NCBI RefSeq assembly: GCF_024662215.1
Contig: NZ_CP096115.1
Location: forward strand, 2,988,935 to 3,052,934
From: Methanoplanus endosymbiosus
GTDB lineage: Archaea; Halobacteriota; Methanomicrobia; Methanomicrobiales; Methanomicrobiaceae
Reading direction: 5' to 3'
Length of the DNA stretch: 64,000 nucleotides
The notes beneath the pieces were generated by a model. It worked only from the letters and a program-made list of their open reading frames with translations. It searched no databases and had not been told where the DNA came from. A program made the position numbers and the translations under genes. Shown here in pieces: positions 5,867 through 45,545 of the stretch (positions within the stretch are counted from its first letter, which is position 1; every line of letters starts with the position of its first letter).

Positions 5867-8770
5867 TCAGTTGAGCATCTTTGCAAGAAACTGTCCGGTG
5901 TAGCTTGCCGGAGATGCAGCAACCTCTTCAGGAGTTCCGGAGGCTATGATCTCACCACCCTTCTCACCACCCTCAGGGCCGAGATCTATTATATGATCTG
6001 CTGATTTGATGACATCAAGATTGTGCTCAATTACCACAACTGTATTTCCCTTCTCAACAAGGCTGTCAAGAACGGATATCAGCTTTTTGACATCATGGAA
6101 GTGAAGCCCGGTTGTCGGTTCATCAAGAAGATAGACTGTATTTCCGGTGGCCTTCTTTGATAATTCCCTTGTGAGTTTAATCCTCTGTGCTTCGCCGCCG
6201 GAGAGTGTGGTTGAACTCTGGCCGAGTTTTATATATCCAAGGCCCACCCTGCATAATGTTTCAAGCTTTGACCTGACTGTGGGGACATTCTCAAAGATAT
6301 AGTATGCCTCCTCAACAGTCATATCAAGGACATCTGCAATTGATTTATCCTTGTATTTAACTTCAAGTGTCTCTGCATTGAATCTTCTGCCTTTGCACTC
6401 CTCACATTCGACATATACGTCCGGCAGGAAATTCATCTCAATTTTAATCAGGCCCTCACCGCCGCAGGCTTCACATCTCCCGCCTTTCACATTAAAGGAG
6501 AATCTTCCCGGTTTATAACCCCTGATCTTTGCCTCCTTTGTCTCTGCAAAGATCTTTCTGATCTCGTCAAAGACCTTGGTGTATGTCGCCGGATTTGACC
6601 GTGGTGTTCTTCCGATAGGACTCTGGTCGATGACTATGACTTTGTCCACCGGAATGTCAGATTCAAGGGTATCATAATCTCCCGGACTGGTCTTTGATTT
6701 ATATACCTCCTTCATCAGAGCCCTGTAAAGGGTGTCATATATCAGGGTTGATTTCCCTGAACCCGATACTCCGGTGACTACAGTCAGAAGTCCGGCAGGG
6801 ATGGCGGCACTGACATCTTTTAAATTGTTCTGCCTGCACCCGTTTATCCGGATGAAGGATTCTGCTTTTCTTCTTTTTGCAGGTGTATCTATCTTCTCCT
6901 TTCCGGAGAGGTACAGTCCGGTAAGGGACTCCGGATTATTTTCAATATCCATCGGAGTTCCTTTTGCTATTACATCTCCCCCGTGGACACCTGCACCCGG
7001 CCCCATGTCTATGACATAATCCGCATTTCTGATTGTATCCTCATCATGCTCCACGACAACAAGAGTGTTGCCGAGATCACGCAGGCGGTGCAGAGTTTCA
7101 ATCAGTTTATGGTTGTCCCTCTGGTGAAGGCCGATTGAAGGTTCATCAAGGACGTACAGAACTCCGGTAAGGTTTGATCCGATCTGGGTTGCAAGCCGGA
7201 TTCTCTGTGCCTCTCCGCCGGAGAGTGTGCCTGCATTTCTTGATAGAGTAAGATAGCCAAGGCCCACCTGTTCGAGGAAACGAAGTCTTGAATTGATCTC
7301 CTTTAGTACCTGTTTTGCGATCTCCTGCTCTTTATCAGTCAGTTCAAGGCCGCTGAAAAATTCAATGGCGCGGCTGATAGAAAGATCGGTTACATCCGCA
7401 ATTGTCCTTCCGCCTGTCCGGACAGCAAGAACTGAAGGCTTAAGCCTCTTTCCGTCACATTTCGGGCACTTTGAGATCTTCATGAATTTCTCAAGCTCTT
7501 TTCTCCGGTACTCCGACTTGGTCTGTGAGTACAGCCGTTCAGCCTGAGGCAGAAGACCCTCCCATGAACCGTTGTGTGACCAGTGCGCTTCTCCCCCTTT
7601 CATCTTCATATCAAACCGGATCTTCTCATTCGATCCATGCATGAGTGCTCCGTACTGTTTATCTGTCAGGTCTTTTATCGGCGTGAAGACATCAAAGCCG
7701 TAATGGGCTGCAACAGCAGCAAGATACTGACTTCTGTATCCGTCAAGGAAGTTTCTGTATGTCGCAACCGCACCATCGGCTATTGATCTGTTCTTATCCG
7801 GAATTATGAGGTCAGGGTCAAAGTCCATCTTTATGCCAAGTCCGTTGCATTCTCCGCAGGCGCCAAAGGGGCTGTTAAATGAGAACATTCTCGGCTGAAG
7901 CTCTTCAAATGAAAATCCGCATACAGGACATGCCATCTTTGAGGAGTAAATCTTTTCAGAGATCTCTTCTGAATTATCTCTGCCTGAACCACCGGCATCA
8001 TCCGGATTTTCATTTTTATGCCTCTCTTCAGCTTCTTCTTCCCCTGATAACTTATCTTCAGCCGAAATTCCGGTGACGAAAACAAGACCGTCAGATTTCT
8101 TTATTGCAGTCTCAACTGCCTCGACAAGCCTTGATCTCTCTTCTGAAGGGTCAAGCCTGTCAATGACAATCTCAATGTCATGCTTTACATATCGTTCGAG
8201 AGTGATCTCCTCATCAGTCCTGATGATCTCACCATCAACCCGGACTCTGGTGAAGCCTTCTGAGTCGAGATCCTTTAACAGCTGCTGGTATGTGCCTTTC
8301 TTCTGCCTCACAACCGGAGCAAGTACTGTTACCATCCCTTTAAAATCCTCAGATACTGCATCAGAGATCTTTTCAGGTGTCCTTGATTCTATTCTGATGT
8401 TATGCTCCGGGCAGTATGGTGTTCCGATTCTTGCGAAGAGAAGCCTGAGATAATCGTATATCTCCGTTACTGTTCCGACAGTACTTCTCGGGTTTTTTGA
8501 TGTTGTCTTCTGCTCTATTGATATTGCCGGGGAGAGGCCGTCTATTGAGTCAACATCCGGCTTGTTCATTAAGCCTAAGAACTGTCTCGCATAGGCTGAG
8601 AGCGATTCAACATATCTTCTCTGCCCTTCTGCATATATTGTATCGAAAGCAAGGGTGGATTTGCCTGAACCTGAAACTCCGGTTATGACGACAAATCTGT
8701 CACGCGGGATTTCAACACTGATATTTTTCAGGTTGTGCTCTCTTGCTCCCTTTATTGTAATATTTTTCAT
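5867..8770 (-). CDS. uvrA: UvrABC excision nuclease subunit A
   Basis: UvrA is the dimeric ABC-type ATPase that finds DNA damage and loads UvrB. The 967-residue protein has two ABC cassettes. The first has Walker [10 protein letters not shown] near residue 32 and signature [14 protein letters not shown]; the second has GVSGSGKST and [15 protein letters not shown]. It carries the paired zinc modules (CPVC..CGEC in the first half, CEAC..CEEC in the second). A roughly 30-residue acidic insert ([15 protein letters not shown] region, residues about 230-260) precedes the first zinc module and explains the slightly long size. It is the first of the three minus-strand uvr genes; about 120 bp separate it from uvrC. 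Confidence 0.97.
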
Positions 8771-9001
8771 TTCCCTGTATCAGAAGAGTTTTGGATCTTA
8801 TTATAAATGAGGATTCAGGCATGCGGGGTGAAAGTAAAAACTCTGTATTATTTCTTTAATATTGGTATTTGGGCAGGAATTGGGGTCTGAATTGTGTGGT
8901 CATTCATTTTGATGCGTTAATTCCGGCAATGTTACTGCATATGCCTGATCCGATAGTGAGATATTTTTCTGGATGATAAATAATCCGGGGTTTTTTATAT
9001 C

Positions 9002-9541
9002 ATGTCTTCTGAATCTTTTGCAACTGATAATACCATACATTCCGGCGGGCTTGCACCTGTATCCGGAAGAGATCTGCTTATCCTTATTCTTGGTAGTTAT
9101 CCGGGTGAGGTGTCTCTTAAGGTGTCAGAATATTATGGCAACCGGAGAAACCATTTCTGGAGATTAATGGAGGAGATTCTCGGCATTGATTCATCTCTGT
9201 CTTATGATGAGAGAATTGAGGCGATTAAATCAGAACGGATTGCATTATGGGATGTATTATATGGATGCAAAAGGGAGAAGAGCAGTGATCACAGCATATC
9301 ATCAGCTATGCCAAATGATATATCCGGATTTCTTGAAGAAAATCCTTCTGTGAAATATATTATTCTGAACGGAAAGACGGGTGCAGGAAAGTGGTTTTAC
9401 CGGACTCAGAAGGATATTCTGGTGTGTGATGATATTACTGTCAGGATTTTTCCCTCGACAAGTCCTGCAAATGCTGTGTTCTCATTTGAAGAGAAACTTA
9501 AGGAGTGGGGAATAATGCGAAAATGGCTTTTGAGGATATAA
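9002..9541 (+). CDS. Uracil-DNA glycosylase superfamily hypoxanthine (deoxyinosine) DNA glycosylase
   Basis: The 179-residue protein matches the family-6 hypoxanthine DNA glycosylases, which remove deamination products from DNA. Residues 29-36 read ILGSYPGE, the motif-1 loop, and YYGNRRNHFWRLMEEI follows at about 44-59, the family's distinctive nucleotide-pocket segment. The C-terminal motif-2 region reads FPSTSPANAVF, close to the LPSTSPANA pattern. It lacks the GE-PG motif of family-4 enzymes. The start ATG at 9002 lies within 40 nt of an A/T-rich stretch. Its position beside uvrA makes a DNA-repair neighbourhood, though it is on the other strand and separately transcribed. Confidence 0.85.
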   Translation: MSSESFATDNTIHSGGLAPVSGRDLLILILGSYPGEVSLKVSEYYGNRRNHFWRLMEEILGIDSSLSYDERIEAIKSERIALWDVLYGCKREKSSDHSISSAMPNDISGFLEENPSVKYIILNGKTGAGKWFYRTQKDILVCDDITVRIFPSTSPANAVFSFEEKLKEWGIMRKWLLRI

Positions 9542-9553
9542 TTATCCCCCATA

Positions 9554-9820
9554 TTATTTGACATTATAATGTTTTATCATAAAATCCCTGATTTTTCCAG
9601 ATTCAGGCCGGCCTTTGTCAGGGCGGTTAATCAGGTTGTCGATCACATTTATCTTTGATATTATTCTGTCAATGTATTCATTTTCTTCCGGAGTTACGCA
9701 GCCTGTTATTGCCTGAAGTGGGTTTTTGATCTCATCATTTAATACCGCAGGATCTTTAAGGTTTTTTTAATCTGCTCAGGACTTTCTTTTTTCTGTTTTT
9801 CCATTCGTGAAACAGCCTCT
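9554..9820 (-). pseudogene. Degraded duplicate of the 3' end of the adjacent PAS sensor gene
   Basis: Read on the minus strand, this stretch encodes a clear relative of the last 85 or so residues of the neighbouring PAS protein. Examples are NDEIKNPLQAITG against NDEIRNPLQAIIG, and PESGKIRDFMIKHYNVK against LESEKIRDFLRKHYSFN. The matching upstream part (MEKQKKESPEQIKK) is in a different frame, with the shift at an A-run near 9765-9772. No start codon or promoter precedes it. It is a remnant of an ancestral tandem copy and not a gene. It stops at a TAA at 9554-9556. Confidence 0.8.
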
Positions 9821-9892
9821 TCTGGTCAACCGTTTACATGCCACATCACAATCTGTGCATCACCTTCTGTGGCATAAATTAAAACTGTAAAA

Positions 9893-11311
9893 TTAATTAA
9901 AACTGTAATGCTTCCTTAAAAAGTCCCTGATCTTCTCAGATTCAAGCCACCCTTTGTCAAGCCGGTTTACAAGCCTGTCAATAACCTTTGCCTGTGAGAG
10001 AATTCTTTCTGTATATTCCCTCTCTTCAAGTGTGACGTAGCCTATAATTGCCTGGAGAGGATTTCTGATCTCATCATTCAGTATTGCAAGATCTTCAAGA
10101 TTTTTTTCAATCTGTTCGAGGCTCTTCCTCTGCTGCTTTTTAAGCTCCATCAGCTCGGTAATCTCAGTAAATATTGCAGCAAACTGGCCGATTTTCGGAC
10201 AGTATGAATAGACATGGTAATACCTGTTTAAATATGGATTATAATTGTCGAACTCATCCGGAATTCCGGTCATTGCCACCTGGCCATATCTTTCAATTAA
10301 GTATTTTCCGGAATCCGGGAATATTTCAAACATTGTTCTGCCTTTGATCTTATCAGCAGAAAGCCCCGTCATATTCTCAAAAGCCTGGTTTACTTTAAGA
10401 AATCTGTAGTCAGCAGGTTCACCGTTTTCATCGGTTATCAGCTCATGGAGTACAAATCCGTTTGTCATCGTTGAAAAGAGTTCTTTATACTCCATTTCAC
10501 TTATTTTAAGAGCTTTTTCAGCATTTTTTCTCTTTGTTATGTTTAGTGATGACTCAACAGCTCCTATAACTTCACCATTGTCATCAAACACAGGGTATGC
10601 GAGAACTTTTACATCTGTATTATTGTAATTAAGTTTCTCCTCAATGAACGGTTTTTTATTTTCTATTGCTTTTTTAACAGTACAGTTCTCACACGGGCTG
10701 TCCCTGTTGTACCACAGTTTGTAGCAGACTTTTCCTATGAGATCCTCAGGTTTCATCCCCAGGGAATCTGCCGGGTCCTGATTGGCCCAGATAATTTCAA
10801 AATCTGTATTGTAATATACAAGGTTCTCGTGTATGGCGTTTAATATTGTAACTTTATCCTTCTCGGATTTTATAAGAGCTTCTTCAGTTTCTTTTCCGGC
10901 AGAGATATCTTCTGCATAAAAACAGATACAGTCCTGATATTCAGGTGATCTTTTTTTATCCCTGAGCAGGTTTGCAGTTATTTTTACGGGGTAATATTCT
11001 TTATTTTTCTGCTTAAATCTGGATTCAAAGGTAAATGCGTTGGAATTACTGTCTCTGTCACCCGATTCTGAATCCCATATTGTAAGCATCTGGTAAATAT
11101 CTTCAAATCTGCTTATCTTTTTTCCGGATGAATCTATTACATATTGTGGCCTGAATAATTGATTAAGGGTTATTCCATAGATATTTTCTGCTTTATTATT
11201 GAGATAGATAACTTTTCCGGATTTATCTGTAAGTATCACTTTGTATGGTGATTTATCTATTATGTCCTTCATAAGACTGTTTTCCGGTGTGAAATAATCC
11301 TGTCTGTTCAT
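9893..11311 (-). CDS. Triple-PAS sensor protein ending in an H-box-like segment without kinase domain
   Basis: From the ATG at 11311 the product has 472 residues; an upstream in-frame TTG (11386) is less likely. It contains three PAS-type domains: about residues 15-135, with a PAS-associated segment, 140-260 with a Cys cluster CYKLWYNRDSPCENC, and 265-385. A short alpha-helical segment, NDEIRNPLQAIIGYVTLEE, resembles a histidine-kinase dimerisation box, but the phosphoacceptor histidine is replaced by Asn and no ATPase domain follows. It probably senses a cytoplasmic signal and passes it on by protein contact. No transmembrane helix is visible. The gene is single and is followed by a decayed copy of its own 3' end. 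Confidence 0.75.
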   Translation of the reverse strand: MNRQDYFTPENSLMKDIIDKSPYKVILTDKSGKVIYLNNKAENIYGITLNQLFRPQYVIDSSGKKISRFEDIYQMLTIWDSESGDRDSNSNAFTFESRFKQKNKEYYPVKITANLLRDKKRSPEYQDCICFYAEDISAGKETEEALIKSEKDKVTILNAIHENLVYYNTDFEIIWANQDPADSLGMKPEDLIGKVCYKLWYNRDSPCENCTVKKAIENKKPFIEEKLNYNNTDVKVLAYPVFDDNGEVIGAVESSLNITKRKNAEKALKISEMEYKELFSTMTNGFVLHELITDENGEPADYRFLKVNQAFENMTGLSADKIKGRTMFEIFPDSGKYLIERYGQVAMTGIPDEFDNYNPYLNRYYHVYSYCPKIGQFAAIFTEITELMELKKQQRKSLEQIEKNLEDLAILNDEIRNPLQAIIGYVTLEEREYTERILSQAKVIDRLVNRLDKGWLESEKIRDFLRKHYSFN

Positions 11312-11674
11312 GGCAGTTTCTCTTCGTTTATTCTGTGAATCATTGGATGTCTCTGTTGTATAATATTTTTTGTACTTACTGGTCAATCTCTGATTCTGAT
11401 TGCTCTTATTATCTGGATATATTCATTATTCTGATTGTTTCCGGGGTGACAAATGCTGTTTTGTAATTGATTTTATGTTTATTTGAGGTTTTCACAATAC
11501 AGATATATAGATTATCTTCGTGTATATCCAACTATTGTCATCTAATTTCTCCCTCTCCTTTTTATAATGCAGTAATCCATTACCTGAATTATTTTTTTTG
11601 GTATAGGTTATATTTAAATTTGGCTAAATATTATATCCTCTGACGACAATTCTGCTAAATAGGTGTTATAAATC
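11312..11674. other. Intergenic region between divergent PAS gene and peroxiredoxin gene
   Basis: No coding region is supported in this 363-bp A/T-rich stretch. It holds the divergent start regions of both neighbours. The best promoter candidate is the TATA-like element at 11608-11619 for the peroxiredoxin gene; its expected start site, about 25 nt downstream, leaves a leader of roughly 30-35 nt. Confidence 0.5.
11608..11619 (+). promoter_or_regulatory. Putative archaeal TATA box for the peroxiredoxin gene
   Basis: The sequence TTATATTTAAAT lies about 56-67 nt before the ATG and fits the archaeal box A consensus. It is preceded by a T-run with no clear BRE. Assignment is by pattern and position only. 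Confidence 0.4.
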
Positions 11675-41156: not shown

Positions 41157-41746
41157 ATGAACTGCTGCCTGTTCATGGTCGGGCGGAGTCACTGTTCAGT
41201 TGAAGTGGGTGCGACAAGAAAAGCTGTAACATAGATTGCGTAAAGCTATCCATTTCGTTTGGGATATCTCTACCGCAGCATGCATTTCTGGTAACGGAAT
41301 TGTGTGAAGCCTGTGGGACAACGTGGAGAAAATCAGGAGTCTAACCTGATCAATCTGCCAGAGAAAGGATGCCATGGAGAAGCAAACGCTGAATCATCGT
41401 ATGGGTCGTAAACTGAGACAGGCGTATTTAGACTGACACGCCCGAACCAAAATGGTATGGAATCAGGTTATGTTGGAAACGCTGACAATATAACAAACGA
41501 ACAGATGGTTCCCGGCCTAAAGATGGCTCCTAAAGCATCTATATTATCTATGTTATGGAACTTGGTAATCCGTATATACTCCCAATTTGGGTATGGAAGT
41601 CGTGAGACCGACAAATGGTATAGACGGAACAGGATGTCCTAAAAAGCTAAGGCCTGCCGTAACGGGCAGGATAGGGGTTGTTGCCTCGACCTGAAAGGGT
41701 GCTGACGTGGGACAGGTATTCCTAAGCAATGAAGGAAGGTAAACTT

Positions 41747-41984
41747 ATGAAAGTATGTCATTCAACGACGCATAATTGCGAGAAACATACTGACAGGGAT
41801 CTTGCCCGGCAATGGAACTCCATTGACTGGGACAAAACAAGAGACACTGTTAACCGGCTACAGATCCGGATTGCAAAGGCAACAAAAGAAGAAAATTGGA
41901 ATTTGGTGAAACGTCTTTCTTACCTGTTAACTCATTCAAGATCAGCAAAATTGCTGGCTGTACGAATTGTTACACAGAACAAAG
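41747..41984 (+). pseudogene. Group II intron reverse transcriptase, 5' fragment
   Basis: This part encodes the RT N-terminal (RVT_N) domain: WNSIDWDKTRDTVNRLQIRIAKA and SRSAKLLAVRIVTQNK. The insertion sequence cuts it after the second base of the TSD-spanning codons. Beyond 41984 the frame reads into the IS and stops at 41999-42001. A ribosome-binding site (GAAGGT) precedes the ATG at 41747; an upstream ATG at 41729 is possible. The joined product (with 44177-45420) would be 493 residues. Confidence 0.85.
41977..41984 (+). repeat. Target-site duplication, left copy
   Basis: GAACAAAG directly flanks the left IS end. The identical right copy is at 44169-44176. An 8-bp direct duplication is the expected footprint of transposition. 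Confidence 0.9.
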
Positions 41985-42101
41985 CTATGGCGTCAAAATA
42001 GAGTTGGATTTATAACTCCCTAAATCCCTCTCAAAACAGCCTACATTCCTTTTAAATTTTGATCTGACTTTCAATTCTAAATCAATGGTTTCATATATGT
42101 G

Positions 42102-42115
42102 GTGATATATATCAC
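42102..42115. promoter_or_regulatory. 14-bp perfect palindrome with TATA core before the transposase gene
   Basis: GTGATATATATCAC ends 5 nt before the GTG start of the transposase. It contains TATATATA and could be a promoter element or a binding site for the transposase or a repressor. The very short distance to the start suggests an operator-like site or a downstream start. Confidence 0.35.
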
Positions 42116-42120
42116 TATGG

Positions 42121-42531
42121 GTGTCATACATACGGAAATACACTCGTCACAACAAAAATGGAGATGTTAAGACCTACTTTGCTGAAGTTGAATCTGTTCG
42201 AATTGATGGAAAAGTTGTCCAGCGATACATCCGACCTTTAGGGACTGATCCATCTTTTCCAAATAATTTTACTATAGATAAAGACCATTTTTCTTTTTTA
42301 GCCAATCAACTAACTGAAAGAGAATTAACTCCAAATGAGGTATTAGATATGTTGGAAAATATGGGACACCCTGTCTCGCGTGAATCCCTTAAGAGTGTAG
42401 GTATTACCTACGACTTTGGAAAAAAAACGTACTCTATTTCCCTTTCCCACCCAAAGAACTCAAAAAAATCCATAACAGATGCCCAGTCTGTAAAAAAAGA
42501 CTCTACGTCCAAAAAGCAGCTAAAAGAATAG
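42121..42531 (+). CDS. Transposase frame A (N-terminal domain)
   Basis: The 136-residue frame begins MSYIRKYTRHNKNGDVKTYFAEVESVRIDGKVVQRYI, like the N-terminus of several archaeal and bacterial transposases. In frame A the protein ends shortly after SKKSITDAQSVKK. An A7 run at 42462-42468 places the heptamer A AAA AAA in frame, and slippage by -1 there enters frame B. The start is GTG. The unshifted product may be a short regulatory form. Confidence 0.75.
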   Translation: MSYIRKYTRHNKNGDVKTYFAEVESVRIDGKVVQRYIRPLGTDPSFPNNFTIDKDHFSFLANQLTERELTPNEVLDMLENMGHPVSRESLKSVGITYDFGKKTYSISLSHPKNSKKSITDAQSVKKDSTSKKQLKE

Positions 42532-44168
42532 TTAAAACATTATCGGGAGAGATCAGGTTTAATATAGTTTATAAATACTGTAAAGAACATGGTGCGTGTA
42601 ATGAACCATTAATCTCAATTTTCAATCAAATATGCCCTGCCGGACGCAACTTTGATACTAAAATAATGGTTGCTGTTGGTTTATTGCGATTTCTTTTTGA
42701 TTTCCAAAGAGATGAAATAAGAACCATTCTTTTATCTCGAGGAATTAGTATTTCAACTGGTGAAATATCTAATCTGTCTAAAGAGCTTTTGTTAAGGTTC
42801 TATGCTCTGCACAAAAGACATATGCCTCAAATGAAGTCCTTTTTTGAGAGAGAAGGTGGCGCAAAGCTTCACCTGGATGGGACCGGAGAAGCAGGAAATG
42901 AAATTGTTTTTATGGCAAAGGACGGGGATACAGGAATTACAATGGATGCCCAAATTATACCAACAGAGAGCAAAAAATATGTTAAAATCTTCCTGAATAA
43001 CTTAAAATCACTATTGGGGGACCCAATAGTCATTGTTAGAGATATGAGCAAGCAGATTCGAGATGCAGCATTTGAGATTTTTCCTGACGTAAAGCACCAA
43101 ATTTGTCAGTATCACTTCGTTAAAAATCTTGGTAAAACCATTTTTAAAACCAGATACTCTACTTTTCGCAAAGATATTGTGAAAATGAGGATCCTAAGTC
43201 AAATCAAGAAAATGAAAGGGGACCTCAGTGCAATAAAACATCATGGTTCTGAAAAAGATATATTCTTCGCAGAGCAAAAATGGATTATTCTTGCTATAGA
43301 GCATCTTCTTATCTGCCGTGAAAGGAGTTCAAATTACCCATTTGGTTTACCCTACTTTGAAATAATGAATAGAATTTTAGATGTCCAAATAATGGCCCAC
43401 AAAATATTAGAATGGAATATGGCCCATAAAGTTAACGTATGTGAAATTAAGGAGTTTTCTGAAAAATTAGATGATATCACAAACAATGCAGGCATAAACT
43501 CCCAATATTCTAAAATTCAAAAGATATGGGAATGGTTTGAGAAAGTGAGGATTACTTTAAGGGTTGGCAGGCACTTAAGTCAAAATGGAAGTGATATGAT
43601 AACCACAAATGCTCAAAATATGAGAGACGATTTTGAGATCATTCTGAATGCCATTGACATAGATGGAGTAACCAAAGGGGGCGAATTACTCCGCGGAGCA
43701 AGGCAAATAACAAACAACTGCAGAAAACACATGGATGAACTTTTTGTGGAAGTAAAAGACACATTTGGTAATGTAGTTGACATTATGAGAGATAATAATA
43801 TTGAAGAACGCGGCCATAGGTGGAGTAGAATGCACATACGAAGACGAACCGGAAGAAATAGAACTACAAACGAAATGGCACAATATGGTGCACTAATGGC
43901 CATTTTCTCAAACCTTGAGAATGAAACTTATGTGAGAGAAATTCTCTATGACATAAAAGATTTTATTCGAGAGATACAGGATATTACAGCTGAAGAGATC
44001 AGCAGTGCAAGTGAACTGGTGAGGCCATATGCACATAAAGAAATTGTACATTCTGACAGTAAGAGATTGGAGTATTTGGAAGAATTCATAAACTTGCTTG
44101 AAGGTGGACGTTCAGCTGAAAAATGGCTATCAAAATTCAATATTTCCAACCGAATAATGACGCCATAG
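42468..44168 (+). CDS. Transposase frame B (zinc-ribbon and DDE catalytic domain)
   Basis: Frame B lacks an ATG until 42666, but it is open from the A7 run and its extra N-terminal codons are clearly coding: RCPVCKKRLYVQKAAKRIVK, then YCKEHGACNEPLISIFNQICP, a Cys/His zinc-binding-like region. The catalytic part has LHLDGTGE, IVIVRDMSKQIRDAA, IFPDVKHQICQYHFVKNLGK (a MULE/ISL3-like arrangement) and a late Glu (EERGHRWSR or NRTTNE). With frame A through the -1 shift the product would be 682 residues. The stop codon lies in the right inverted repeat. Confidence 0.82.
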   Translation: MHNRCPVCKKRLYVQKAAKRIVKTLSGEIRFNIVYKYCKEHGACNEPLISIFNQICPAGRNFDTKIMVAVGLLRFLFDFQRDEIRTILLSRGISISTGEISNLSKELLLRFYALHKRHMPQMKSFFEREGGAKLHLDGTGEAGNEIVFMAKDGDTGITMDAQIIPTESKKYVKIFLNNLKSLLGDPIVIVRDMSKQIRDAAFEIFPDVKHQICQYHFVKNLGKTIFKTRYSTFRKDIVKMRILSQIKKMKGDLSAIKHHGSEKDIFFAEQKWIILAIEHLLICRERSSNYPFGLPYFEIMNRILDVQIMAHKILEWNMAHKVNVCEIKEFSEKLDDITNNAGINSQYSKIQKIWEWFEKVRITLRVGRHLSQNGSDMITTNAQNMRDDFEIILNAIDIDGVTKGGELLRGARQITNNCRKHMDELFVEVKDTFGNVVDIMRDNNIEERGHRWSRMHIRRRTGRNRTTNEMAQYGALMAIFSNLENETYVREILYDIKDFIREIQDITAEEISSASELVRPYAHKEIVHSDSKRLEYLEEFINLLEGGRSAEKWLSKFNISNRIMTP

Positions 44169-44176
44169 GAACAAAG
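44169..44176 (+). repeat. Target-site duplication, right copy
   Basis: GAACAAAG immediately follows the right IS end and is identical to 41977-41984. Reading across with one copy removed gives the codons AAC AAA GGT, continuing the reverse transcriptase in phase. Confidence 0.9.
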
Positions 44177-45420
44177 GTAAGCGTACACCCGGCATAGACG
44201 GAGAAATCTGGAACTCAGCATCTGCAAAGATGCAGGCAGTTCTGAGCCTCACAGACAAAAATTACTGTGCAAAACCATTACGACGTATTTATATCCCTAA
44301 ACCTGGTAAGAAAACAAAGCGACCAATCTCAATTCCATCCATGTATGATCGGGCAATGCAGGCTCTCTATGGATTGGCCCTACAACCAATCGCAGAAACA
44401 ACAGCAGACCCACGTTCATTTGGATTTAGACTTTTCAGATCAGCACAGGATGCATCAGAATATGCATTTACGTGCTTAGGAAGAAAGACATCATCCATAT
44501 GGATTCTGGAAGGAGACATCCGGGGATGCTTTGATAATATTAACCATGTGTGGCTTAAGGAACACATACCTATGGATCAATCAATCCTTACACAGTTCCT
44601 AAAATCGGGATTTGTCTTTGATAATGTTCTCTTTCCGACAGATAAAGGTACTCCACAAGGAGGCCTTGTGTCTCCAATTCTTGCGAATATGACACTCGAT
44701 GGAATTGAACATATTCTTGATGAACAATTCCAAAATATGAAAGTTCACTTTATTCGCTATGCAGATGACTTTCTGGTCACTGCACCTACAGAGGAAATCG
44801 CAAAAGAAGCAAAGGAGATAATAAAAGAATTCCTCGCAATAAGAGGCCTGGAATTATCGGAAGAGAAAACGTTGATTACTCATATCAACAATGGCTTTGA
44901 CTTTTTGGGGTACAATTTCCGGAAATATAAAGGAAAACTCCTCATTAAACCATCGGAGAAATCAATCAAGTCAATTACTGATAAAATTAGGACTAAAGTT
45001 AAAAAAGCCCGAGCATGGTCTCAGGAGGAATTGATAAAGGTATTAAATCCAACCATACGAGGTTGGGTAAATTATCATCGTCATAATGCAGCCAAGGAAA
45101 CTTTCCAGAAATTAGATCACTATCTCTGGACAGTAACCTGGAAATGGGGTAAACGTCGACACACTAACAAAGGTCGCAAATGGGTAGCAAGTAAATATTG
45201 GCATGTGGAAGGCAAAAGAAAATGGGTTTTCAAAACAGAAGAGAATACGTTAATACAATTCTCGGAAGCTCCCATCCGTAGACATTCTTGCCCAAAGCTT
45301 AATGCTAATCCCTATCTTGACAGGAAATATTTCCTCGAAAGAAAGGAGAGAATGAGAAGACAAACGCCATGGATCCAAACTAAATTATCTTATTTTGCAC
45401 TGCCGCCCGCTAACGGGTAG
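44177..45420 (+). pseudogene. Group II intron reverse transcriptase/maturase, 3' fragment without endonuclease domain
   Basis: It continues the RT with KRTPGIDGEIWN, the fingers-palm blocks (LEGDIRGCFDNINH, GTPQGGLVSPILANMTLD, the FIRYADDFLV catalytic YADD box) and the maturase X/thumb segment (NPTIRGWVNYHRHN). The typical C-terminal HNH endonuclease (paired Cys pairs and His pair) is absent: the protein ends about 25 residues after ANPYLDRKYFLERK. An internal ATG at 44230 gives an isolated open frame, but the fragment lacks RT block 0 and part of block 1 and is unlikely to work alone. Confidence 0.87.
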
Positions 45421-45430
45421 TGGAATGCGT

Positions 45431-45465
45431 GAGCCGTATGCGGTGAAAGCTGCAAGTACTGGTTC
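45431..45465 (+). ncRNA. Group II intron domain V catalytic hairpin
   Basis: The 35-nt segment starts GAGCCGTATG and ends TACTGGTTC. GAGCC pairs with GGTTC, an AGC triad is at 45432-45434 and a GAAA tetraloop caps the hairpin. It is one nt longer than the common 34-nt form, with an extra T in the 3' strand. Domain VI (45468-45500) follows. Confidence 0.85.
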
Positions 45466-45545
45466 TTGGAAGGGGGGGAGGTGGTAACACTTCCTCCCTA
45501 TTCGACAATATGCAGTTTAATCAGGTGGACTTTTTGTCTGGAAAG

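What the first reader, a model, noticed from the sequence alone, without database searches (positions are those of the whole stretch)
41977..44176. An insertion sequence inside a group II intron reverse transcriptase, with exact target duplication
Seen: terminal inverted repeats CTATGGCGTCA, identical 8-bp GAACAAAG on both sides, and codon phase preserved (AAC AAA G / GT). Deleting 41985-44168 and one GAACAAAG copy restores a continuous 493-residue RT. This nested mobile element has trapped the intron in a disabled state. The RT could regain function only by precise excision or by supply in trans from another copy. It is also a useful test of whether the intron can be mobilised in trans.
Basis: seen in the sequence. 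Interest (0 to 1): 0.75.

Follow-up and report, generated by a model that had tools for sequence, protein, structure and literature searches.

The report
Recoded archaeal IS inside retro-intron
In a methane-producing archaeon, a recently active jumping gene has landed inside a second kind of mobile element (a group II intron), which is ordinary and has precedents, but the jumping gene itself appears to make its enzyme only when the cell slips on a run of 8-9 A's, a conserved recoding site of a type rarely documented in archaea.

Summary
A 2,184-bp IS (41985-44168) with 11-bp terminal repeats and an 8-bp duplication sits in the RT gene of a group II intron (41209-45506). The genome holds four more copies of the IS, all 100% identical, each with its own perfect 8-bp duplication. 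It also holds two intact introns whose RT protein is identical to the window RT read across the junction.

The claim that the intron is trapped is therefore too strong. Only this copy's RT gene is broken: its ribozyme domains are present, the insert lies in the RT-coding region of domain IV, and an identical RT is encoded elsewhere. Nesting of this kind is known (T. elongatus TeI4g::ISEL2f; M. mazei S-6).

The same split, at an in-phase A_AAA_AAA, nearly always within an A8-A9 run, occurs in about 20 relatives from methanogens and ANME archaea. Two clades need -1 and one needs +1. Since all five identical copies carry the split and none is fused, the element almost certainly transposes by recoding, by transcriptional slippage or ribosomal frameshifting. 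The transposase is a divergent Mutator/IS256-like DDE enzyme outside every NCBIfam cutoff.

The parts
41209..45506 (+). whole group II intron (GTGCGAC...TATTCGAC) including the IS; 2,106 bp without IS and one target repeat
   Evidence: boundaries shared by five uninterrupted copies with different flanks; sister genome G120 has the intergenic site without the intron, although short exon stretches at the junction align only loosely
41247..41379 (+). 5' ribozyme region, match to group-II-D1D4-7
   Evidence: Rfam RF02012, 53.7 bits, full model 1-151
45429..45506 (+). intron domains V-VI
   Evidence: Rfam RF00029, 53.2 bits, full model 1-77
41747..41984 (+). 5' part of the RT/maturase gene (RVT_N); frame runs on into the IS to a stop at 41999-42001
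   Evidence: Pfam RVT_N 7.9e-22; ORF list
44177..45420 (+). 3' part of the RT/maturase gene (RVT_1, GIIM)
   Evidence: Pfam RVT_1 1.7e-40, GIIM 3.1e-23; TIGR04416 320.5 bits over cutoff 300
41977..41984 (.). left target duplication GAACAAAG
44169..44176 (.). right target duplication GAACAAAG
41985..44168 (+). insertion sequence, 2,184 bp
   Evidence: five 100% identical copies each with its own 8-bp duplication
41985..41995 (+). left terminal inverted repeat CTATGGCGTCA
   Evidence: also present in the 63%-identical relative L030
44158..44168 (-). right terminal inverted repeat
42121..42531 (+). transposase orfA (zero frame), 136 aa if read without recoding
   Evidence: homologues at 25-63% identity in 11 further loci
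42420..42427 (+). recoding site: A8 run holding the in-phase heptamer A_AAA_AAA (42420-42426)
42393..44168 (+). transposase orfB (-1 frame), no start codon before 42666; DDE residues D148 (42876), D203 (43041), E458 (43806), C224/H227, numbered from 42435
   Evidence: Transposase_mut 31.8 bits > 21; conserved columns; positions; model pLDDT 81, best PDB match ISCth4 E 1.7e-6

Best explanation
A recently active Mutator-like IS transposed by DDE-catalysed insertion with an 8-bp staggered cut into the RT gene (domain IV) of one of several near-identical group II introns in a Methanomicrobiales genome. Shown from sequence: exact duplication, identical sister IS copies, intact sister introns encoding an identical RT, and ribozyme domains present on both sides. 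Inferred: the interrupted intron has lost only its own RT and can still be spliced, and perhaps moved, by RT made from a sister copy. The transposase is not encoded in one frame. OrfA and orfB are joined by recoding at an A8-A9 run to give a roughly 680-residue OrfAB, which is taken to be the transposase; OrfA alone may be a regulator (inferred). The change of direction between clades (-1 or +1) at the same A run, the run length of 8-9 and the lack of a consistent downstream stem favour transcriptional slippage over ribosomal frameshifting (about 60:40).
For: Nesting; five identical IS copies, five different perfect duplications. Trans supply: L023 and L024 RT identical to the joined window RT; intron DNA 99.8% and 98.8% identical. 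Ribozyme regions: full-length Rfam matches on both sides. Recoding: an in-phase A_AAA_AAA in the orfA-orfB overlap at all 33 loci where both ORFs were found (about 22 non-redundant). In nearly all, the A8-A9 junction run itself is the site; for truncated or atypical L044/L062 and L087 the script printed a neighbouring run, and in L044/L062 the junction itself reads GGG AAA AAA ACG, an A7 run. The codon before the two Lys codons varies (GGA, GAA, GTA, ACA, CAA) but ends in A in 15 of 15, and Lys is AAA in 15 of 15 against 10/15, 7/11 and 13/16 at other conserved Lys columns. -1 and +1 each form one group in the tree. No single-frame copy exists in the genome, so the copies that moved carried the split. 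Mixed direction at poly-A in one transposase family was taken to indicate transcriptional realignment in PMC3711429. Fold: ISCth4 best PDB match.
Against: No expression, splicing or transposition data. Splicing of an intron carrying a 2.2-kb insert in domain IV is inferred from other systems. Most relatives are draft MAGs, where homopolymer errors occur (L048 differs by one A). The +1 clade rests on three non-redundant loci and long branches. A hairpin lies about 48 nt downstream of the site in the window clade, too far for the usual stimulator but not excluded.
Confidence: 0.85

Rival explanations
1. The joining of orfA and orfB is classical -1 programmed ribosomal frameshifting at A_AAA_AAA, as in IS1/IS3 and as proposed for the ISMich2 group, not transcriptional slippage.
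For: Canonical in-phase X_XXY_YYZ heptamer in all loci; -1 direction in two of three clades; -1 frameshift proposed as translational for ISMich2 elements (PMC3942029).
Against: +1 direction in the Methanophagales/Methanolliviera clade at the same run; the run is nearly always at least A8; no conserved stem 5-9 nt downstream.
Confidence: 0.4
2. The frame break is decay: the IS copies are pseudogenes moved in trans by an intact relative now lost.
For: Many IS copies in genomes are broken; the G128 copy has an in-frame TGA.
Against: The same split at the same nucleotides in relatives down to about 25% identity, with orfB open and conserved; five identical copies, no intact single-frame copy.
Confidence: 0.04
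3. The intron copy is dead: the IS insert blocks folding or the intron RNA is never spliced, so trans-supply is irrelevant.
For: A 2.2-kb insert with its own ORFs can lower splicing and mobility; PMC2882425 argues that smaller introns move better.
Against: Both ribozyme halves match Rfam at full length; domain IV/ORF insertions are outside the catalytic core (established knowledge of group II introns); identical RT is encoded elsewhere.
Confidence: 0.35
4. Assembly artefact: a repeat collapsed or joined wrongly inside the intron.
For: Both IS and intron are multi-copy repeats.
Against: Single-contig genome; exact TIR ends and duplication; each of five copies has its own duplication and distinct flanks.
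Confidence: 0.02

Closest known systems
TeI4g::ISEL2f in Thermosynechococcus elongatus (PMC2882425)
   Same: IS inserted in the RT/IEP gene of one of many related group II introns; sister introns encode active RTs, several of which act in trans
   Different: bacterium; different IS; there the IS-deleted protein had low activity, here intact sister genes encode an identical protein
Methanosarcina mazei S-6 group II intron divided by a transposase (PMC8919778, legend of Figure 4)
   Same: archaeal group II intron interrupted by a transposase gene
   Different: other genus; IS type not described there; CL1A-type intron, while the class of the present intron was not assigned here
ISMich2 group (p-MULT 4, ISKra4-related) (PMC3942029)
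   Same: Mutator-like IS with transposase in two ORFs joined by a predicted -1 shift
   Different: p-MULT 4 elements were reported only from bacterial phyla there; the ISKra4 NCBIfam model gives 14 bits against a cutoff of 205 here; position of their shift not compared
IS256 family (ISCth4)
   Same: Mutator-like DDE core, C-x2-H motif, 8-bp duplication; best structural match
   Different: 35 bits against cutoff 150; extra OrfA N-terminal part and recoding
Archaeal recoding: fucA1 of Saccharolobus solfataricus (PMC8211752); Mg-chelatase of methanogens (PMC3711429)
   Same: A-rich shift site, -1 frame
   Different: cellular genes, not a transposase; the abstract of PMC8211752 calls fucA1 the only reported archaeal case of programmed -1 frameshifting (its text adds some archaeal viruses)

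Membership tests
Group II intron retroelement | domain V and 5' ribozyme domains | tested here: met
   RF00029 53.2 bits, RF02012 53.7 bits, both over gathering
Group II intron retroelement | RT/maturase (RVT_1 + GIIM) in domain IV | tested here: met
   interrupted here, intact in L023-L026 and L020
Group II intron retroelement | insertion without target duplication, shown by an empty site | tested here: met
   alignment to G120 spans the junction without duplicated sequence, though the immediate exon bases are diverged
Group II intron retroelement | EBS/IBS pairing at the insertion site | tested here: inconclusive
   no single EBS1 candidate fits all four sites well
Mutator-like DDE transposase superfamily | sequence profile over curated cutoff | tested here: met
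   Transposase_mut 31.8 > 21; MULE 27.7 > 27.6
Mutator-like DDE transposase superfamily | RNase H-like fold with DDE | tested here: met
   model pLDDT 81; ISCth4 E 1.7e-6, but TM-scores only 0.2-0.35 over the whole length; conserved D148, D203, E458
IS256 family | NCBIfam IS256 model over cutoff | tested here: not met
   35.1 bits against 150
ISKra4 family / ISMich2 group | NCBIfam ISKra4 model over cutoff | tested here: not met
   14.2 bits against 205
ISKra4 family / ISMich2 group | two transposase ORFs joined by -1 shift | tested here: met
   +1 in one clade
ISKra4 family / ISMich2 group | phylogenetic placement with ISMich2 reference elements | not testable with these tools
   no ISfinder reference sequences at hand
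Programmed recoding | conserved slippery site with downstream frame under selection | tested here: met
Programmed recoding | stimulatory element at 5-9 nt (typical of ribosomal frameshifting) | tested here: not met
   no consistent structure in seven folded stretches from six elements
Programmed recoding | measured fusion product | not testable with these tools
   needs experiment

The most novel reading that the evidence does not exclude
A previously undescribed family of archaeal Mutator-like IS elements in methanogens and ANME archaea makes its transposase only by RNA-polymerase slippage on a conserved A8-A9 run, with the direction of slippage changed between clades. This would be programmed transcriptional realignment in archaea.
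Probability: 0.45. Interest if true: 0.65.

Novelty: new variant of a known kind. Interest (0 to 1): 0.45.

Why it matters
The nesting is a clean natural example of an intron whose own RT is disabled while identical RT genes remain, so cis- versus trans-action of an archaeal intron RT could be tested. The IS adds a clear candidate for conserved recoding in archaea, where little beyond one cellular gene has been demonstrated (PMC8211752); five identical, recently moved copies in one complete genome make it directly testable by RNA-seq, proteomics or a reporter.

Tried and rejected
Single-protein scans of genome contigs and viral contigs gave nothing; an alignment query then gave 28 loci. Tested whether the bacterial plasmid relatives (Microvirga, Nostoc, Deinococcus, Rhodovastum; 23-25% identity) share the recoding site: they break frame at a different place, so they are not the same group, and they too miss all NCBIfam cutoffs. 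EBS/IBS assignment was inconclusive. A flank motif CGGANNNACTGTTCAG near several introns is only weakly enriched (27 against 10 in the reversed-pattern control; 3 against about 1 expected in the window), so no claim is made. A search for 5S rRNA added nothing. Filee 2007 and Dai & Zimmerly 2003 were not held. The organism was not identified by a tool; a 63%-identical relative in the same order is titled 'uncultured Methanomicrobiales archaeon', so the order is Methanomicrobiales by inference.

Full report
Observation. The IS is 41985-44168 with 11 exact terminal base pairs and GAACAAAG on both sides. Read across the junction, the RT is open for 499 codons from 41729 and 493 from 41747. The genome (one contig of 3.16 Mb) has five copies of the 2,184-bp IS, identical at every base, each flanked by a different perfect 8-bp repeat. 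That excludes chance and makes recent transposition the only sensible reading. A degenerate 91-bp left end also exists.

The intron. It runs 41209-45506, starting GTGCGAC and ending TATTCGAC, between a Ppx/GppA-like gene and, on the opposite strand, an RNase III-like gene (gene names are my reading of the ORFs, not tested). Without the IS and one repeat it is 2,106 bp, the length of four uninterrupted copies, while a more distant fifth is 2,112 bp. Ribozyme models match at both ends, and the RT has RVT_N, RVT_1 and GIIM. The sister genome G120 of the same genus has the two neighbouring genes without the intron and no copy of this intron or this IS at the thresholds used. The genome has eight good domain V sequences and one degenerate, against a mean of 3.0 introns per intron-bearing archaeal genome in PMC8919778.

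Trans supply. Introns at G000:C1 2391194 and 2810297 (domain V ends) are 99.8% and 98.8% identical to the window intron and encode the same RT protein without change; three further full-length introns have open RTs at 94%, 88% and 68% DNA identity. The interrupted intron is thus not cut off from RT. Sister IEPs can mobilise ORF-less introns in T. elongatus, where one intron, TeI4g, also carries an IS in its ORF (PMC2882425). ORF-less introns usually sit beside related RT genes (PMC4424553). Whether the archaeal RT acts in trans is inferred, not shown.

Other nested introns here. Two more of the eight introns carry an IS: an IS1634-family element (314.8 bits) inside the RT gene of the intron near 206857-210744, with duplication GTTGCACC, and an IS701-family element (221 bits) upstream of a still open RT in the intron ending at 2814343. 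IS landing in intron domain IV is thus recurrent in this genome. With intron ORFs being dispensable, long targets, this needs no special targeting, and I did not test enrichment. A transposase dividing an archaeal intron was already noted for M. mazei S-6 (PMC8919778).

The IS. No reading frame encodes a whole transposase. OrfA (42121-42531) overlaps orfB, which lies in the -1 frame, opens after the stop at 42390-42392 and has no start codon before 42666. In the overlap, GGA AAA AAA ACG holds an in-phase A_AAA_AAA in an A8 run (42420-42427). Relatives found in whole-genome and contig searches come from Methanomicrobiales, Methanosarcinales, ANME-1/Methanophagales, ANME-2, Methanoperedens, Argoarchaeum and Methanolliviera. 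Wherever orfA and orfB could both be read up to the junction (33 loci, about 22 non-redundant), an in-phase heptamer is present in the overlap. Exceptions in detail: L063/L097 carry a deletion that fuses the frames; L048 has one A fewer and reads +1; L044/L062 have GGG AAA AAA ACG, a run of seven at the junction; for L087 the script printed an upstream run, while the junction GTA AAA AAA ACG is seen.

Selection on the site. The amino acid before the two lysines is G, E, V, T or Q, but its codon ends in A in all 15 sequences examined, and the lysine is AAA in 15 of 15 while other conserved lysines use AAA in 7/11, 10/15 and 13/16. Sequences are related, so this is not a formal probability, but three deep clades agree. 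In the tree, -1 elements form one side (16 rows) and +1 elements another (3 rows), each with full support; the +1 clade sits on long branches. By the argument in PMC3711429, mixed directions at a poly-A run in one transposase family point to transcriptional realignment; PMC1088944 reports that IS genes use such A9 runs. No stem at the usual distance is conserved. I put transcriptional slippage at about 60% and ribosomal frameshifting at 40%.

Enzyme. OrfB matches Transposase_mut and MULE above Pfam cutoffs, MULE only just, and no NCBIfam transposase model above cutoff. Conserved D148, D203, C224, H227 and E458 fit a Mutator-like DDE enzyme. The AlphaFold model (pLDDT 81) finds ISCth4 of the IS256 family first and the hAT transposase Hermes next; TM-scores are low (0.2-0.35), as expected for a shared core with different additions. 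The ISMich2 group of p-MULT 4 is the nearest described parallel with two ORFs and a -1 shift (PMC3942029), but membership could not be tested directly.

Judgement. The nesting itself is a new instance of a known arrangement. The IS is the more interesting part: a divergent archaeal Mutator-like lineage with a conserved recoding site, present as five identical copies in a complete genome.

Noticed in passing
L027 7871-9711 (G000:C1 ~207870-209710), inside the intron at ~206857-210744: A second group II intron RT gene in the same genome is interrupted by an IS1634-family element (transposase L027:8069-9679) with an 8-bp duplication GTTGCACC.
   Followed up: partly
L024 ~7480-11344 (G000:C1 ~2810480-2814343): An intron directly behind the intact intron L024 carries an IS701-family element upstream of an open 483-aa RT; two introns lie in tandem here.
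   Followed up: partly
L112-L115 (plasmids of Microvirga, Nostoc, Deinococcus, Rhodovastum): Distant bacterial relatives also break frame, but farther along the transposase, and are mostly left unannotated; one is called ISNCY with a length not divisible by three.
   Followed up: partly
L063 / L097 (G416:C122, ANME-1 GoMg1): A copy with an internal deletion that puts orfA and orfB in one frame, removing the recoding site and the N-terminal zinc-finger-like part of orfB.
   Followed up: no
L006 (G000:C1:2788048-2788138): A 91-bp degenerate left end (84% identity) of the IS: an older relic of the same family.
   Followed up: no
window 41184-41199 and flanks of L023, L024, L025, L028: Several introns sit next to short CGGANNNACTGTTCAG-like motifs, some in clusters; only weakly enriched genome-wide (27 against 10 control matches).
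   Followed up: partly
L020 and L027 intron 5' flanks: Two introns share almost the same 5' exon (AAAACAGCGAGGAGCCA), as expected for homing to related sites.
   Followed up: no
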